A DNA stretch of 64,000 bases from Uloborus plumipes (Eukaryota; Arthropoda; Arachnida; Araneae; Uloboridae), in NCBI GenBank assembly GCA_038373865.1, contig JAXGGA010003038.1:45958-109957 (forward strand). The letters run 5' to 3'. The translations under genes were made by a program, and so were the position numbers. Of this stretch, positions 3,001 to 53,075 are shown in pieces (position 1 is the stretch's first letter; every line of letters begins with the position of its first letter). Under the pieces are notes generated by a model. That model made no database searches. It worked only from the letters and a program-made list of their open reading frames with translations, and was not told where the DNA came from.

Positions 3001-4196
3001 TCTGTGTGCTGGACGTTTACTACATAAAGTCTATGTGACTTTCTCCCTTTTATTTTAAGTAAAAAAAAGTCTCCTGGAGAAAAAATCTTTTGAAATCTGT
3101 AACTTTTGTCATTCTAAGATCTAGTTGCTCACGAGAAGGGATAAACAGTAATAAATCCTTGTCCCTGTCTTGATTAGAAGATTTGGGGTTAGAATCTTGA
3201 TTTTTCAAACAATTTCCTTCAAATAAGTTTGAATTCGAACAACAGAACTAAGTGTTCCGATTCACCCCGCAAATTTTTTTCCCATGGCATTTTTCAGAAT
3301 TCTTCACTTTTATGACACAATTTATAAAAAATGTAAATTCTAATGTGGTATTCTGTTGTTCAGATACATGTATAATTGAAACATACCACTCATAGTTTTT
3401 AAATATAAGAAGGTTTGTTCTTGCATATGAAGTTTTGCAGTCTATGAAATTGTGATGTTTTCTAGCATTCAACGTGCAGCCCTCTTTAGAATCCAGTAGC
3501 GTTGCCAGATTGACAAAAGTATTTTTTTCCTACTTCCTATGATCTTACCTTTCTAAAAAAAAATTCATGGCGAAAAATACCCAATAGTATATTTATGAAG
3601 AATTTCTTTGTACGGTTGGGAAGTTTTGTTCCGATTGACCCCGCTGTTCCTATACACCCCATTTTACGGTATTAAGTTATGATTTCATTTGTTTGTTTTG
3701 AAATTAATTTATCACGTTTTACTAAACTATCTTACATTTTACGTGTGCTCATTCATACTTTCATCTCTGTACCTAATGTCTATTGATTTTAGCAACCTAT
3801 TATTTAGCCTATTTTATTACAAAACTTTATCCTAAATTTCTGCGTATCTATTTCTACATCTGGCATGTAACTAATGTGTCTATGTGCTGATAACTTTTAT
3901 TTGTAGCTATCCATTTTTATAATTTATATACATAGTTATTCTATCTCATAGATTGAGAAGGGCAGAATAGGCCTTGATCCTCATGGGCTGTCGCACCACT
4001 GAGTAGCGCAATCAATAAAACAGCGTTTTTGTGCATCTGTGCAATTTTCTATTCATTTACTGATATATCCATTGAATATTTTATATATTTATTTTAACTG
4101 CGCAAATCCTGAAGCTGTGCTACTATATTTCATGCACTAATTGCATCAAAAGATGAAATCGAGAAATTTTGTAAAACTAGCAAGCAAACTACTTAC
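1..4196 (-). other. start of unc-5 intron 5
   Basis: This begins at the donor of the first TSP1 exon and runs off the window. It holds the 1.29-kb inverted-repeat element (2379-3669), several G/C homopolymers (C14 near 747-760, C-runs near 1247, G-runs near 1593), and a (GAAAA)n stretch near 1917-1952. No second TSP1 exon, tRNA or other gene was recognised on either strand. Confidence 0.85.
2379..3669. mobile_element. 1.29-kb inverted-repeat DNA element, TA-flanked
   Basis: The ends are perfect 14-bp inverted repeats, ccgtaaaatggggt, each flanked by TA as in Tc1/mariner-type insertions. A second motif, ggggtYaatcggaaca, occurs at least five times inside: forward at 2388 and 2580, and reverse at 2556, 3252 and 3628. 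Such subterminal repeats often bind transposase. No transposase frame is present, so it is non-autonomous. The superfamily is inferred from the TA flank only. Confidence 0.75.
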
Positions 4197-4364
4197 CAGG
4201 ACAAAGTGAAGTACAATCAGTCTTCTGCAATGGATCCCCAGAACAAGGTTTCCCTCCGTTTAGTGGAGCTGGGTTCGTGCACAACCGCGATCTTTGCTGA
4301 CCTCCGCGACCACACCTGGCGGTGCACTCTGACCATGGGCTCCACGTTGACCAACCTCCATTCA
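4197..4364 (-). CDS. unc5: unc-5 exon 5: thrombospondin type-1 repeat 1
   Basis: Residues 250-305 plus one base. The acceptor is a polypyrimidine run plus cag at 4367-4365; the donor is gtaagt from 4196 (phase 1, again a 1-1 module). It encodes one complete TSP1 repeat: tryptophans 254, 257 and 260 in [10 protein letters not shown], the WxxW pattern that is C-mannosylated in the family, then [20 protein letters not shown] and the closing TSLCP. All six cysteines are present (263, 267, 278, 290, 300, 304). The position before Cys267 is Arg rather than Ser/Thr, so the usual O-fucose site is absent. The second TSP1 repeat should follow directly in the mRNA but is not found within the remaining 4.2 kb. 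Confidence 0.97.
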
Positions 4365-5207
4365 CTGAAAAAAAATCAGAAATGATTTTTTTGTTCTTTA
4401 ACTCGTGTACTTTTCAACTATCTCGAATCATATCTCGTAAAATTAACGTGCTGTCGTATCACTGATTTGTTGAAAAGGTAAACATTCTGTCTCTACGCGA
4501 AAACGAATGAGTCTCTTAGTTGTTTAGAGTATATGCTTTAGCTTCATAAGTTTTAATTCCGCTATAAATAAAATGCTTACAATAAAATAACTTCAAAATG
4601 ATTGATTCTCGTTCCAGCATTTTTTTTTCTTTGTAAAATTAAAAGTTTGCAAAAGAGGTTTTTTTTCATTTCACAAACAAGCGTGTTATCATATTTACTG
4701 ATGCTAGACAAGGTTCTTTTTTTTTTACTTCTACTGGCCGTTTGCCAATATCCATGCAAAATCCAAAACCATACTGATCACTATTATAGCTAAATGTTTC
4801 CCTTTTTTAATTCTCGAAAATATCATAACGCTTCATTAGCAAATGAGTAAAGGTTGCAATAGATTTTTCTTTTAAACATGAAATTAACTTCTAGTCAGAT
4901 GCGTAAATCAAAAAACGGAGAATTATATTGTTACTCGAATTGCAATCAGTCTGAGTTTATATAAATTTTAGTTTTTCTGTTTTCTAGAGGAGGGGCATAC
5001 ACATGAACAATAAAGATCATAATGGTAAATTGAAAGAAAGTTACTTTCCAAGGTTGAAGACCAGGAGGCTGATCAAAAAAAAAAGAGTTGTACTCTCTTA
5101 ATTGTTTACAATACATTATAAACAATTGATATTTTTTGATTAAAATGTAACAAAAAATTCACATGTAACATTTAAAAAGTTTTAATTGCGTTTTTCTTAT
5201 TTTAAGT

Positions 5208-14290: not shown

Positions 14291-14906
14291 AGAGAGGGGG
14301 TCACACCCCCAAATGTTTTTTGCAGAATCTTAAAAACTGGTAAATTCAATTTATGCATAATACAAATCAGTAATCACGTTCTACAGGAGCTCAAACAGTT
14401 CATTTTCAACAAAAATTGATAAAGCTTATCCTTAAACATATTATCAAGATTATTTCTAATAAGACAGGAATCCGGAAAATATGCTCTGAAACAAGTATAA
14501 CGGGACAAGAAAGGATTTTCAACTTTAGCTGCTTGGGAAATAGCACAAGACAATGGGAATCGATGGAAAAAAAACTCTTTTTTTTTGTCTCCAAACATTG
14601 CAGATTATAACTTGACTGAAAGTTTAAAACTAATTACTAATCAAGACATTTTGTGTGATAAATAATTACAAAATAGTTTTTCGCTTTGGTCGTAAAAATT
14701 TAAACTGTTTCGTAACTCCAATTTTTCTAAATATTAAATCCATTTTAAGATGTTTTTCTTTTTACCAATATGTATTTTGTTCCATTCTGAGTTACTTCAT
14801 ATTTATGAAACTCACCCCCTTAAACGGAATGCTGAAATGCCGCCCCTGGAGTGAAGTGAAGTAATTTTACCGAGTAGTAATAGAAAAATATACATAATGT
14901 ACGTAC

Positions 14907-15191
14907 CATAGACTGTAAGAGTAGCTGTCTCACTATACCGACTGCCAGCCGGATTTCTCGCCACACACGTATAATTTCCCATGTCCGCAAGCCGTACTAC
15001 ACTAATTAACAAGTTGCCTTCATTGGAAATAATGAAGTTGGGATCTTTGGCGGTGTCTATCTTTTCGCCGTTCTTCAGCCAGAGCACTTCTGGAAGAGGA
15101 ACGCCTTCTGGTGGAAGACACTGCAGAGAAATCTGACCTTCGATTTCCACATGGGTGCTTAGTGGTTGGTTTTCGAAATGCTTTTTCAAAT
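14907..15191 (-). CDS. unc5: unc-5 exon 4: Ig domain 2
   Basis: Residues 155-250. The acceptor is tcatttcag and the donor is gtacgt (phase 1), so the exon is a 1-1 symmetric domain module. It opens LKKHFENQPL, the inter-Ig linker typical of UNC5. A C2-type Ig follows: Cys179 in LQCLPPEGVP, Trp192 in VLWLKNGEKID, then RLADMGNYTCVARNPAG with Cys230. Asn227 in NYT is an N-glycosylation sequon conserved in family members. In UNC5 the two Ig domains together form the ligand-binding arm. All core Ig residues are present and the length (95 residues) is normal. Confidence 0.97.
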
Positions 15192-15399
15192 CTGAAATGA
15201 AAAAATTGATGCTATCACAAAACGGTTACTGAATGCGCAACAAAAAAAATCTAACAAACATTTTAAAAGAACTATCAAAATGTGGTGAACTTTGCAAATA
15301 TCTGAGTCGTATTTTTTAACTTTGGAAATATGATGGAGTCAGGAGTACATTTTTAAGGGTAGTTTTGAATCGCATAACGATTGACTTAAAACTGAAGTA

Positions 15400-23780: not shown

Positions 23781-23829
23781 TTCACCGTCTCATACTGTTT
23801 CAAGGTATGCAACATAAATTTTTACTTAC

Positions 23830-24011
23830 ATGCCGTCTTGACAATGGCGCTTCTACTTTTCGTTGTGCCGCTCGATGACCAAGCGACACAACCGCAGGTG
23901 AAGCCATTGGGACCGAAATATTCCTCCACCTCTTTCCTGGTGATGTCCACGCTCACCTCCAGATGCCTGACACCAGTTTGTGGATCAACGAATTCCTGTT
24001 GACTGTGATGC
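23830..24011 (-). CDS. unc5: unc-5 exon 3: second half of Ig domain 1
   Basis: Residues 94-155: the first G completes Arg94, and the final T starts the Tyr155 codon completed by the next exon. The acceptor is ctcacacag and the donor is gtaagt (phase 1). The segment contains DPQTGVRHLEVSVDITR, then EEYFGPNGFTCGCVAW with Cys133 and Cys135, then SSSGTTKS. These are the D-to-G strands of the UNC5 Ig1, and the CxC pair plus SSSGTTKS is the most diagnostic string in the gene. It lies between intron 3, whose donor-proximal end is a tandem repeat array (22.7-23.8 kb), and intron 2, which carries a foldback element beginning 121 bp upstream of the acceptor. Confidence 0.96.
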
Positions 24012-24131
24012 CTGTGTGAGAAACAAGGGAAAAATAATAATAAAAAAAAAAAAAAAAGAAAGAGTCTCGATGAACACTACCTGATAGGAAAAAAATAGAT
24101 GGAATCCAGACTTTTTGCAAGGGTTAAACAG

Positions 24132-27691: not shown

Positions 27692-27816
27692 ATTGTAACT
27701 TCTCATTTTTTCCTGCTATTAATTATAAACGCAATGGATTTTAACCTCTAAAAAAGAAATATATTTTCAAAGTATATATTTGCACTCATTCTCCAATTGA
27801 TCATAAATCTGCTCAC

Positions 27817-27997
27817 CTGTGGTGGATAGCTTTCCCATTACAGGAGAAGTGCAGCTGTAATGCATTCTTCACTTTACAGGATAATGTGGCAGGTCGACTC
27901 CTCACTACGTAAGTGTCTCTTGGCTCTTCTAGAAACACTGGACGTCCAGAAGTGTCGACATCGTCGGTGGGAAATGGGTCCAAGAGTAAGCCTCCAT
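27817..27997 (-). CDS. unc5: unc-5 exon 2: first half of Ig domain 1
   Basis: Residues 34-94. The acceptor is tttcttttacag at 28009-27998 and the donor is gtgagc (phase 2). After an acidic linker (DPFPTDDVD) the Ig1 domain starts near FLEEPRDTYVV. It continues through LSCKVKNALQLHFSCNGK, with Cys74 and Cys86. UNC5 Ig1 characteristically has a pair of cysteines here, matched by a pair in the second half of the domain, forming two disulfides. Human paralogues have the same spacing (as remembered from the family). In UNC5 proteins this N-terminal Ig contributes to netrin binding. Splitting of Ig1 by an intron between the C and D strands is seen here directly. Confidence 0.95.
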
Positions 27998-28097
27998 CTG
28001 TAAAAGAAAGATGGAATTGTAACTCAAATACCTTATCGACGTACATAATATTTATTGAACATGATAGCCACTAAAAGTTTTTGAGTCATAGTAGTTT

Positions 28098-45434: not shown

Positions 45435-45908
45435 TAGTTAAATTTTAACTAAAAATATGAACGATAAAGTGATTATGAACTATAAATTTTGTACCTCATA
45501 ATCAGACTAACGTAAGTTCATTTTCGTAACTTTTCAGGAGATGGTGAAAACGATTGTCGGAAGCATGCAAAGGCTCGCGTCTTTTCATAAAGCTAAATAA
45601 TTGTGAAGGAATTTCTTTTGTGGAATAAAGTTCTTATGGGTTGACGTGGAAAAAGTATCCCGCATACAATGCTATAATAAAGTGAAAATAGCCAGTTTTC
45701 GTCTTCGTCGTTCTGGTTCTGAGGTGCAGAATTATTGAAGGTAAAGTAAATAGATGCAAATTAAAACACAAATTTCGAAAAATTAAGGATTATTTGCGAA
45801 GTACACAAACAAAAAACGAATTAAATTTTGTAAACAGATGTAAATTAAAAAAAACAAAACAAATAATCAAAAGGACGGTAGTTTAAAAATATACAATTAG
45901 TCCACCTG

Positions 45909-47700
45909 AAAAAAAAAAATCAAACACACACCTCTCCCTACTCAACCCACTCACCCCTTAAATACTAATCAACCACAAAACTCCACAAACACAATATATT
46001 CCTATCCACCCCAACAACTAATCAAATCCCCACCTTCTCATTCCCCCACCCATCCACTCACTTTACTCCAAAACCCCTTATACCATCTACCCACCACACC
46101 CCTTCCCCTCTTCCTCAACAAATCCAAAAACCTCCCCTCCTCCTAACATTATACCCCAACATAAAAACCACAACCTCAATAATCCAACTAAAACTTCTCC
46201 AACAACCCAATCATCCCACCCCCACACCCCAAATAATACCCAACTCTAATAACCCCCCTAAAAACAAATATCCTACCCCAAAAATAAACAATAAACCAAA
46301 ACCCCTCTTCTAAAAAACCCCACAACTCAAAAAAAAAAAAAAAAATTCCATCCCCCCCAACCTCATCCCAACCCCACCCACTATCCCCTTAAAACAAAAT
46401 CTCAACAATCTACCGACCAAATCCCTCCTTAAAACAAAAAACAACAAAACCTAAAAATACCAATACTAATCCCAACACAACCTACCCACCCCCAATATAG
46501 AGGATAAGAATATATACCCCCCCCCCTCTTCAAAAAAAACACCTCCCATCCACCTATCAACACCCCCACAACCCATACACTCCCTCTCCCACTCCACTCC
46601 CCTCACACCACCAGAGAGAGTGAGAGAGAGAGTGAGAGAGAGAGTATATCATCCCCCATATCAAAACCTCCCTAGACTATAGATCTATAGAGATCCTAAC
46701 TACCACACCCCCAATAAAACTCTCTCGTAAGACTCTCAGCGCTCACGTCCAACAATCAAACACTCTCACTCGCATCATCGCACACAATAAAAACAAAACC
46801 ACTCCCCCTTATACCCCAACCCAAAATCTACTGACACTACTTCACACACGCTCTACTTCCCCATTCCAAAATAACCCACTAAACCCCAAAGAGAGTAATC
46901 CCCCCCCAAACTCTAATAACATACATCACTAAAAACCCCCCCCACCTCACACCCATCCCCCAACACACCACAAACCATCCATACCCAACTACCCCCAACC
47001 AAACAAACCTCCTATATATATCACAACACACCACTCGCACACTACGCACCCTCCCCACTATTTTACTTTAATAAACCTATCCATCTCCATACACTATTTT
47101 TCTTTTTCTTCTTTAATCTCCACATATCACTCATTAGAGATATTCTAGATATAACAAAACCAACCAACACCCACCCATATAAAAACAATTTTACCTTCCC
47201 AACTCACCCCCCCCCTCCAAACATATATTAAACACACGCCCATTAAATATATATATAGAGAGATATCTCTCTAGTCTACATGTGTAACTACCCCCCTCTC
47301 ACTCATCACTCTAATCCACCCCCCCCCTCTCCCACACACACACGCTCTCTCACTACACTCTCACTCTCCAAAACCCACCCAAATTCCCCATCAATTTTCC
47401 TTAAACCCACCTCACCCCCAAAACCCCCACCTCCTCACACCACGCTCTCTCACACAGATCAACCACCTACCAACCTCAAAACCCACCAACACGCACACAC
47501 ACTCTCTCTCTCACTCTTCTATCACTCTCTCTAACACTCATCTATCTCCCCTCAACAGCCCCATAGAGCAACCACCCTACCTTAAAAACAACAAAACTAT
47601 CTATTCCCCACCACACTCCATCAGCAACCAACCACAAAATAAAAATAAATTTCCGACCCGCCATCGAGTAAATAATAATAACCCGCATCTATTCACTCTA
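45909..47700. repeat. G-depleted, strand-asymmetric low-complexity block
   Basis: From 45909 to 46414 there are 506 consecutive bases with no G at all, then two more long G-free runs (46416-46499 and 46509-46613). From 46612 on, short GA, CT, CA, TA and C-run tracts alternate, with G slowly returning by about 48100 (a CG run sits near 48103). The sequence is not a simple tandem repeat. It lies 1.2-3 kb downstream of exon 1; the unc-5 transcript (minus strand) would be C-free and G/U/A-rich there. It could be real skewed satellite-like DNA or a consensus error over a difficult repeat. Confidence 0.85.
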
Positions 47701-48542
47701 TCACTCTTGTGTATGTGTGATTCTCCACATCAACGAAAAACTTAACTGACTCTTCAGCAGACCCACTCCTCCCCCTTACCCGCACGCACTGCACACCAAT
47801 CAGAAGCATACATGGAACTTTATTACATATCTATTTTCTCCCTACCCAAAATGTTACAACAAAATGTCCTGACAAAAACCCCCTCTCATCTCCGTGCCAA
47901 TGGCGTCAACACGACAAGCTTCACCAAACATTGTCAGATAGAGTCAGAGAGTCGACGCTCGCACACAATATCGCACGCGCACCCACTCCCTTCCCATTAC
48001 GCTCGCTATTACGTTGCCAACACACCTCACACTTTACACCTTAACCTATCATACAAAACCGATTTAATTATATTAACACTAACTCTATCAAATATTTCAC
48101 TCTCGCGCGCGCGCAGATTAGAGGAATCGAAATATGCTCACTCAATTGACATCCCGGTATTCATGTAATTACACTCGATTTTACCCCGCATGACTATATA
48201 CTAATAGCCAACACTGCACTGATACTAATTTATTATAGCACCCCTGCTCTAGCTTTTATTCCTCATCACAGAAATAGTCACGGGGGAGTGTTTCAAGGGT
48301 CTTTGGGGCGTGTGTGTGATTCGTGATATACTTGGGGGATCAGATCTTTTGGTATTTCCCAGTCTGGTATGCGGGTATGCAACATACGTGGGGCGGAGCG
48401 GGGGAGATGGCACGAACACTTACGAGATCCAAGTTATTGAAAACCGCTTGTATTTGCAGCCTCCATATTTTCTAACATACGATTTTCTCTTCGTGAAGAT
48501 GCATTTGTTTGTATAATAGCAGGCCAGCTAAAGTATTTTTTT

Positions 48543-48815
48543 AGTGAACTAAAATTTAGATTCTTAATGAAGAGTAAGGTGGTAAAAATGTAGTTGTCAG
48601 TAATCCATCACTGACGGGATCTCTGAAGGGCACTGTTAGCAAACTAAACAGACATCTGATGAAGAGTAAAATAGTAAAAATGTTATTGTCAGTAATCCAA
48701 TACTAACAGGATTTCTGAAATTGTTTTCAGCGAACTAAAATTTGGATTCTTAATGAAGAGTAAGATGAAAAAAATGTTGTTGTCAACAATCCAAAATAGT
48801 CTCTCTGAAAGCACA
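48543..48815. repeat. three-copy tandem repeat next to exon 1
   Basis: Copies at 48543-48637, 48638-48728 and 48729-48815 share aactaaa, gatgaagagtaa/aatgaagagtaa, aaaaatgtNgttgtca, aatcca and tctgaa. The array ends about 45 bp from the exon 1 donor, inside intron 1. Confidence 0.85.
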
Positions 48816-48861
48816 TATGATATTATCTCAGTGAAAGAAGCTAAATGATTAATGAACTCAC

Positions 48862-48961
48862 CGTCATGTCTTGTTGATCTTCCTGCTCCAGAACTGACAA
48901 GTGACACTCCAGTTAAAATAAATATCAACACAACACAAGTCCTATCCATGACGAAATGCAT
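48862..48961 (-). CDS. unc5: unc-5 exon 1: signal peptide and N-terminus
   Basis: Encodes residues 1-33 plus the first base of codon 34. The chosen ATG (48961-48959) is the first in this frame after an in-frame TGA at 49081-49079. A second ATG four codons later (48949-48947) is equally plausible. After MDRT comes a hydrophobic stretch, CVVLIFILTGVSLV, ending in small residues SSGAG, which is a textbook secretory signal with cleavage near Ser-Ser/Gly. The exon ends GAC G before donor gtgagt (phase 1). The next exon supplies AT to complete Asp34. There is no domain homology in so short a segment; the call depends on the signal peptide, the donor and the in-frame join to the Ig1 exon 20.9 kb away. 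An intervening exon in intron 1 cannot be excluded. Confidence 0.8.
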
Positions 48962-52726: not shown

Positions 52727-52753
52727 TAAATAAATAAATAAATAAATAATAAC

Positions 52754-52845
<92 letters not shown>

Positions 52846-52849
52846 CAAC

Positions 52850-52905
<56 letters not shown>

Positions 52906-52909
52906 CAAC

Positions 52910-52965
<56 letters not shown>

Positions 52966-52981
52966 CAACAGCAATAATAAC

Positions 52982-53074
<93 letters not shown>
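52727..53074. repeat. (TAA)n array with 60-bp higher-order period
   Basis: About 350 bp of TAA repeats. Interruptions aacaacaaca begin at 52841, 52901 and 52961, exactly 60 bp apart, so three blocks were duplicated as 60-mers. The minus strand gives a spurious poly-Leu frame. Confidence 0.95.

Positions 53075-53075
<1 letters not shown>

What the first reader, a model, noticed from the sequence alone, without database searches (positions are those of the whole stretch)
45909..48200. 506 consecutive bases without a single G, inside a 2-kb skewed block at the start of intron 1
Direct count shows no G from 45909 to 46414 on the plus strand, although C is abundant. At a background G frequency near 0.17 (assumed) the chance is of order 10 to the minus 41. 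The block is not a simple repeat. The unc-5 transcript would be C-free and G-rich here, 1-3 kb downstream of its start: the geometry associated with stable R-loops and G-quadruplexes. The alternative is a failed consensus over a long GA/GT-type repeat, supported by the patchwork of short dinucleotide runs to its right. Either answer matters: unusual biology or a misassembled segment.
Basis: partly seen in the sequence, partly recalled or inferred. Interest (0 to 1): 0.75.

Follow-up and report, generated by a model that had tools for sequence, protein, structure and literature searches.

The report
Sequencing noise inside unc-5 intron
The 506-base stretch without any G is really in the assembly, but similar scrambled, G-free text occurs at other unrelated places in the same assembly, so it is most likely sequencing noise rather than a genetic feature.

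Summary
The count is right: 45909-46414 holds no G, and G stays scarce to about 48.2 kb. Chance is excluded. The gene is unc-5 on the minus strand; the tract lies in its presumed intron 1.

The window's own 1.42-Gb assembly explains it. A G-free, C-rich 35-place pattern expected 5-18 times (Markov estimate) matched 406,335 times; a stricter one expected about once matched 47 times in 46 contigs, 26 forward and 21 reverse. Of 20 places fetched, 14 hold a G-free run of at least 500 nt, two are long G-poor tracts, four are short or chance hits. One further tract has 1648 G-free bases with 282 C in a row. Ten tracts compared share essentially no homology beyond local composition. A C/A/T repeat decaying by simulated substitution gained Gs long before losing order.

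Best reading (0.93): base-calling or consensus noise built into the contig. R-loop and G4 rules do match the letters, but cannot tell noise from DNA. No reads were available; platform and trigger are unproven.

The parts
45909..46414 (.). G-free core of the tract: C 210, A 206, T 90, aperiodic text; left edge abrupt at an A11 run
46415..48250 (.). G-poor graded zone: patchwork of short CA, CT, AG, TA, TG and CG dinucleotide runs; G returns from left to right
   Evidence: 29 dinucleotide runs of at least 6 nt against 4.1 expected from the rest of the window per 1836 nt
48285..48415 (.). short G-rich patch with opposite skew (51 G, 19 C); whether it belongs to the noise is unknown
45476..45735 (.). 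about 260-bp interspersed repeat in the left flank (context, genuine DNA)
   Evidence: nearly all of the 40 matches other than itself fall here, best 80-83% identity; 5655 candidates at first look, 40 scored
48861..48961 (-). presumed unc-5 exon 1: ATG at 48961 or 48949, signal-peptide-like start, donor GTGAGT at 48861 (inferred from sequence, no domain match)
27816..28070 (-). open frame holding an unc-5 exon, N-terminal half of the first immunoglobulin domain
   Evidence: PF25609 Unc5_NetrinR_N E 3e-16; UNC5D and UNC5B chains
23825..24076 (-). open frame holding the following unc-5 exon
   Evidence: PF25609 E 2.8e-20
14815..15225 (-). open frame holding the second immunoglobulin domain
   Evidence: I-set E 3.7e-14; (best match Roundabout, UNC5 also among matches)
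4192..4413 (-). open frame holding a thrombospondin type 1 domain
   Evidence: TSP_1 E 1.3e-10

Best explanation
The block is not DNA of the animal as written. It is base-calling or consensus noise that was carried from the long-read data into the contig, in place of, or inserted into, ordinary intron sequence. Shown: the tract belongs to a class of G-free (on one strand), aperiodic, mutually unrelated tracts scattered through this assembly, in both orientations and in grades from mild C/A/T text to near-pure C. Inferred: while a read passed this place (or no good read covered it) the base caller emitted almost only C and A with some T, the consensus step had too few good reads to correct it, and the signal recovered patchily, which would give the dinucleotide patchwork of 46.4-48.2 kb. 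The platform, the trigger and the true length of the missing sequence are not known. A lead from memory, not tested: if the platform was one that puts A with C and G with T in shared dye channels, noise confined to one channel would give such an alphabet.
For: A pattern for G-free C-rich text matched 218,383 + 187,952 times in the 1.42-Gb assembly (overlapping matches, many per tract) against 5-18 expected from Markov chains of order 1-4; a stricter pattern matched 47 times in 46 contigs against 1.0-1.4. Of the first 20 of these 47 places, all fetched, 14 hold a G-free run of at least 500 nt (539 to 2998, seven cut by the end of the stretch or contig), 7 in each orientation. L042 has 1648 G-free bases, with 282 C in a row, which no ordinary nuclear sequence explains. 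L050 and the right part of L053 repeat the anatomy of the window tract: abrupt left edge, G-free core, graded patchwork to the right. Ten random stretches (95,957 bases) had no such tract; their only G- or C-free run over 100 nt with more than 25% of the partner base was a clean TA/TG array. Tracts are unrelated: best blastn score among 10 of 16 tracts 189 bits, against 146-187 in ten shuffles that keep composition in 24-nt steps. The 506-nt core and its near flanks occur once. Substitution of a C/A/T array gives many Gs before it destroys the order: at 5% change 0 of 300 simulated arrays were G-free while lag-2 identity was still 0.90, against 0.41 observed. In L049 a 92% identical copy matches up to the exact base where the tract begins and then runs on as ordinary sequence.
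Against: No reads, qualities or coverage were available, so the artefact is inferred from the assembly alone. The L051-L059 score (189) is 2 bits above the highest of ten local shuffles, far above a first-order Markov null (53-67), and the longest shared word (21) is above the one shuffle scored (19); I read this as local composition. The reversed-pattern control (28 and 34 matches) is no lower than the pattern, because it too is a G-free C-rich pattern, so only the Markov estimate serves as a null. The window tract itself is not among the 47 matches. Edge shape is not uniform: of 8 tracts with both edges seen, five have the wider graded zone on the right and three (L049, L055, L061) on the left. 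In L049 the repeat could by chance end at that base.
Confidence: 0.93

Rival explanations
1. Template-triggered failure: the true sequence is a long compound CA/CT/TA (GT/GA on the other strand) array, and the reads or their consensus fell apart over it. This is a special case of the artefact.
For: Dinucleotide patches at 46.4-48.2 kb are about seven times denser than in the rest of the window (29 in 1836 nt against 4.1). G-free text needs only C, A and T, the letters of such arrays. The genome has long clean arrays of this kind. Loss of HiFi coverage over GA-rich sequence is reported for the human genome (PMC9186530, passages read), and PacBio errors at G4-rich repeats for avian genes (PMC6792250, passages read).
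Against: Arrays of about 190-240 nt come out clean (L004). No array sits at any of the 14 left edges printed (L057 has a CT run about 100 nt before the edge). The core has no lag-2 signal above z 2. Near-pure C text (L042) does not look like a damaged dinucleotide array. The L049 copy continues past the tract edge as ordinary sequence.
Confidence: 0.3
2. Real G-free DNA kept by selection in unc-5 intron 1, acting through R-loops or G-quadruplexes on the nascent transcript.
For: Orientation and position fit: the minus-strand transcript would be C-free and G-rich about 0.6-3 kb after the presumed exon 1 donor. The QmRLFS rule as I coded it fires only in this block. Three G4 motifs lie there.
Against: The same kind of text occurs at many unrelated places in both contig orientations and in near-pure-C form. 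G-quadruplex or R-loop function does not need the total absence of one letter over 506 nt, nor disorder. The strongest 25-nt G4Hunter windows are elsewhere.
Confidence: 0.03
3. An old C/A/T microsatellite scrambled by mutation.
For: Dinucleotide patches on the right.
Against: Simulated substitution yields a mean of 9 Gs at 5% and 35 at 20% change, with 0 of 300 arrays G-free from 5% up, and still leaves higher lag-2 identity (0.90 and 0.65) than observed (0.41). Slippage was not simulated, but Tandem Repeats Finder finds little in the core.
Confidence: 0.01

Closest known systems
Coverage loss and consensus errors of long reads at GA-rich or G4-rich sequence (PMC9186530 and PMC6792250, passages read)
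   Same: Local failure of long-read sequencing or assembly that leaves a defect in an otherwise good contig.
   Different: Those reports, in the passages I saw, speak of missing coverage and high error rates; here kilobases of fabricated-looking, letter-depleted text stand in the contig. Six paper searches on this kind of defect and one on poly-G with HiFi or Revio listed no paper whose title or listed abstract describes it; I opened only four papers, at passages.
R-loop forming sequences (QmRLFS model, PMC4489302, passages read)
   Same: G clusters followed by a long zone of at least 40% G on the transcript strand.
   Different: Composition alone; no evidence that the DNA exists, is transcribed or forms a hybrid.
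Compound dinucleotide microsatellites of the same genome (L004, L011)
   Same: Letters C, A, T (or G, T, A) and short dinucleotide patches.
   Different: Those are clean, periodic arrays; the tract core is aperiodic.

Membership tests
Noise tracts of this assembly | Long run without G on one strand, C-rich, far beyond chance | tested here: met
   506 nt; 14 of 20 fetched places 539-2998 nt; L042 1648 nt
Noise tracts of this assembly | Aperiodic text unrelated between tracts | tested here: met
   (L064 is an exception with strong lag 1-3 correlation); on 10 of 16 tracts, top score at the upper edge of the shuffle range
Noise tracts of this assembly | Disagreement with raw reads or low coverage | not testable with these tools
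   no reads held
Noise tracts of this assembly | Tract replaces or interrupts sequence known from another copy | tested here: inconclusive
   window: no second copy of the left flank among 41 scored matches, right flank search did not complete; L049: homology ends exactly at the tract edge
R-loop forming sequence (QmRLFS) | Initiation zone of G clusters with at least 50% G, then 100-2000 nt with at least 40% G | tested here: met
   20 zones on the minus strand, all in this block, my own code of the published rule
R-loop forming sequence (QmRLFS) | RNA-DNA hybrid in cells | not testable with these tools
   needs DRIP or similar
Simple repeat or microsatellite | Periodicity | tested here: not met
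   core 45909-46414: no lag above 1 exceeds z 2.4 in 200 lags; met only in patches of 46415-48250

The most novel reading that the evidence does not exclude
The tracts are real: the animal carries many kilobase-long, non-repetitive, G-free filler tracts made by untemplated DNA synthesis (a terminal-transferase-like or damaged-repair process restricted to C, A and T on one strand), one of which sits in unc-5 intron 1.
Probability: 0.03. Interest if true: 0.9.

Novelty: not a real feature. Interest (0 to 1): 0.15.

Why it matters
As biology, probably nothing. As data hygiene it matters: this assembly holds letter-depleted text in contigs without any N, which would mislead skew, G-quadruplex, R-loop, open-frame and transposon searches. 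The tract alone contributes false open frames (for example 45969-46313 and 47275-47745 on the plus strand). A 35-place pattern is enough to flag many such places.

Tried and rejected
R-loop or G4 function: the rules match, but they match composition and the class argues against real DNA. Decayed microsatellite: rejected by simulation of substitutions. A shared transposon or satellite: rejected, the window tract has one match in the genome and tracts are unrelated. An allelic contig that would show the true sequence: none among the 41 scored matches of the left flank; the right flank did not complete. A fixed polarity (abrupt left, graded right): at first suggested by the window, L042 and L050, but three of eight tracts with both edges seen go the other way, so not claimed. 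GG scarcity in the graded zones: seen in the window (5 against 8.9 expected), L053, L060 and L067 but not in L050 and L057, so not claimed. Share of Gs with equal neighbours is raised in all six zones measured (0.43-0.75 against 0.28). A G-rich two-copy look at C1 and C2 loci gave only one further tract. Papers: PMC12923665 was opened at passages because a listing joined poly-G and artifact; it is irrelevant. PMC6280752 is not held.

Full report
The observation. The plus strand has no G from 45909 to 46414, 506 bases, with C 210, A 206 and T 90. G is then rare and returns gradually up to about 48.2 kb. Under the G frequency of the rest of the window a G-free 506-mer has a probability of 10^-38.7 at a fixed place, and 200 shuffles of 59 kb gave no run above 76. 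The core is aperiodic: of 200 lags only lag 1 exceeds z 2.4. The zone 46415-48250 has lag-2 correlation and 29 dinucleotide runs of at least six bases, against 4.1 expected from the rest of the window.

The setting. The gene is unc-5 on the minus strand: two open frames match Pfam's Unc5_NetrinR_N (E 3e-16 and 2.8e-20), others an immunoglobulin and a thrombospondin domain, and solved UNC5 chains match. A presumed first exon with a signal-peptide-like start has its ATG at 48961 or 48949 and a GTGAGT donor at 48861; it has no domain match, so 'intron 1' is an inference. The window is the right-hand 64 kb of a 109,957-base contig in an assembly of 1,424,420,891 bases and 25,906 contigs.

The class. 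The assembly itself gives the answer. Among the first 100 matches listed for a C-cluster pattern was a second tract. Read on the minus strand, this tract (L042) has 1648 bases without G, most of it random C and A, with 282 C in a row. A G-free C-rich 35-place pattern then matched 218,383 times forward and 187,952 times reverse. Expected numbers from Markov chains of order 1 to 4 are 5 to 18. These matches overlap heavily, so they are not a count of tracts; up to the L042 tract, which lies about 1.18 Mb into the listing, there was only one other match. A stricter pattern matched 47 times in 46 contigs (26 forward, 21 reverse) against 1.0-1.4 expected. The tool's own control, the pattern read backwards, gave 28 and 34; it too is G-free and C-rich, so it is no null.

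Anatomy of relatives. I fetched the first 20 of the 47 places in list order. Fourteen have a G-free run of 500 nt or more: 539, 823, 843, 898, 1037, 1127, 1455, 1739, 1764, 1781, 1951, 1960, 2050 and 2998, seven of them cut by the end of the stretch or contig, seven in each orientation. Two more (L057, L067) are long C-rich, G-poor tracts with G-free runs of only 74 and 89. Four (L054, L058, L062, L066) are short or chance matches. L050 is a near twin of the window tract in anatomy, with an abrupt left edge, an 898-nt core and about 0.9 kb of patchwork with runs of C; L053's right side shows the same mix of CG, CA, CT, TA and AG patches. A rough inference, not a count: at 0.05-0.1 stricter-pattern matches per tract, the assembly would hold several hundred.

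Tests. Tracts are not a repeat family: among 10 of 16 tracts (those under 60% C) the best blastn score was 189 bits; ten shuffles that keep composition in 24-nt steps gave 146-187 for the same pair, while a first-order Markov null gave 53-67, so the excess is local composition, with a 2-bit remainder. The window tract has one match in its genome, itself (the tool skips simple repeats and common words). Simulated substitution in a C/A/T array brings Gs in long before order is lost. In L049 the left neighbour of the tract is 92% identical to another place in the same contig up to the exact edge base; beyond it the other copy runs on as ordinary sequence, then a tandem array, and the tract does not match it. 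That fits replacement, though the repeat might end there by chance. Ten random stretches, 95,957 bases, held no such tract.

Interpretation. I take the tract as base-calling or consensus noise in the contig (0.93). Shown: the class, its scatter, both orientations, lack of homology, near-pure-C extremes. Inferred: the mechanism. Whether a difficult template triggers it is open: a long dinucleotide array would explain the patchwork, but clean arrays exist and no array lies at the 14 left edges printed. A fixed direction of onset and recovery is not supported: five of eight tracts with both edges seen are wider on the right, three on the left. From memory only, not from any call: a platform that pairs A with C and G with T in shared channels could give such an alphabet.

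R-loops and quadruplexes. Read as real DNA the tract meets the published QmRLFS rule (passages of PMC4489302): 20 initiation zones on the minus strand, all here, none elsewhere in the window and none on the plus strand. It has 3 G4 motifs, as many as the other 59 kb examined on that strand; the top 25-nt G4Hunter windows lie elsewhere. These rules only score letters.

Limits. No reads, no depth, no species name, no second assembly. The search engine was busy for most calls, so the window's right flank was never compared with the rest of the genome.

Noticed in passing
L042 1740-3387 (contig 2, about 509.7-511.4 kb): A 1648-base tract with no G on the minus strand, including 282 C in a row: an obvious defect in a 649-kb contig.
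   Followed up: yes
L064 1-539 (contig 2370, bases 1-539): A G-free tract of another flavour (runs of A, T and C, strong lag 1-3 correlation) that reaches the very end of its contig.
   Followed up: partly
window 45476-45735: A repeat of about 260 bp with thousands of candidate copies in the genome (5655 at first look, 40 scored at 80-83% for the best).
   Followed up: no
window 48538-48794: A 92-bp tandem repeat, 2.7 copies, between the tract and the presumed exon 1.
   Followed up: no
L071 (contig 141, 24602-27601): Next to an ordinary stretch that continues the L049 repeat lies a long tandem array with units near 60 bp.
   Followed up: no
window 52745-53075: AAT array of about 110 copies, clean, showing that long simple repeats are otherwise assembled without noise.
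   Followed up: no
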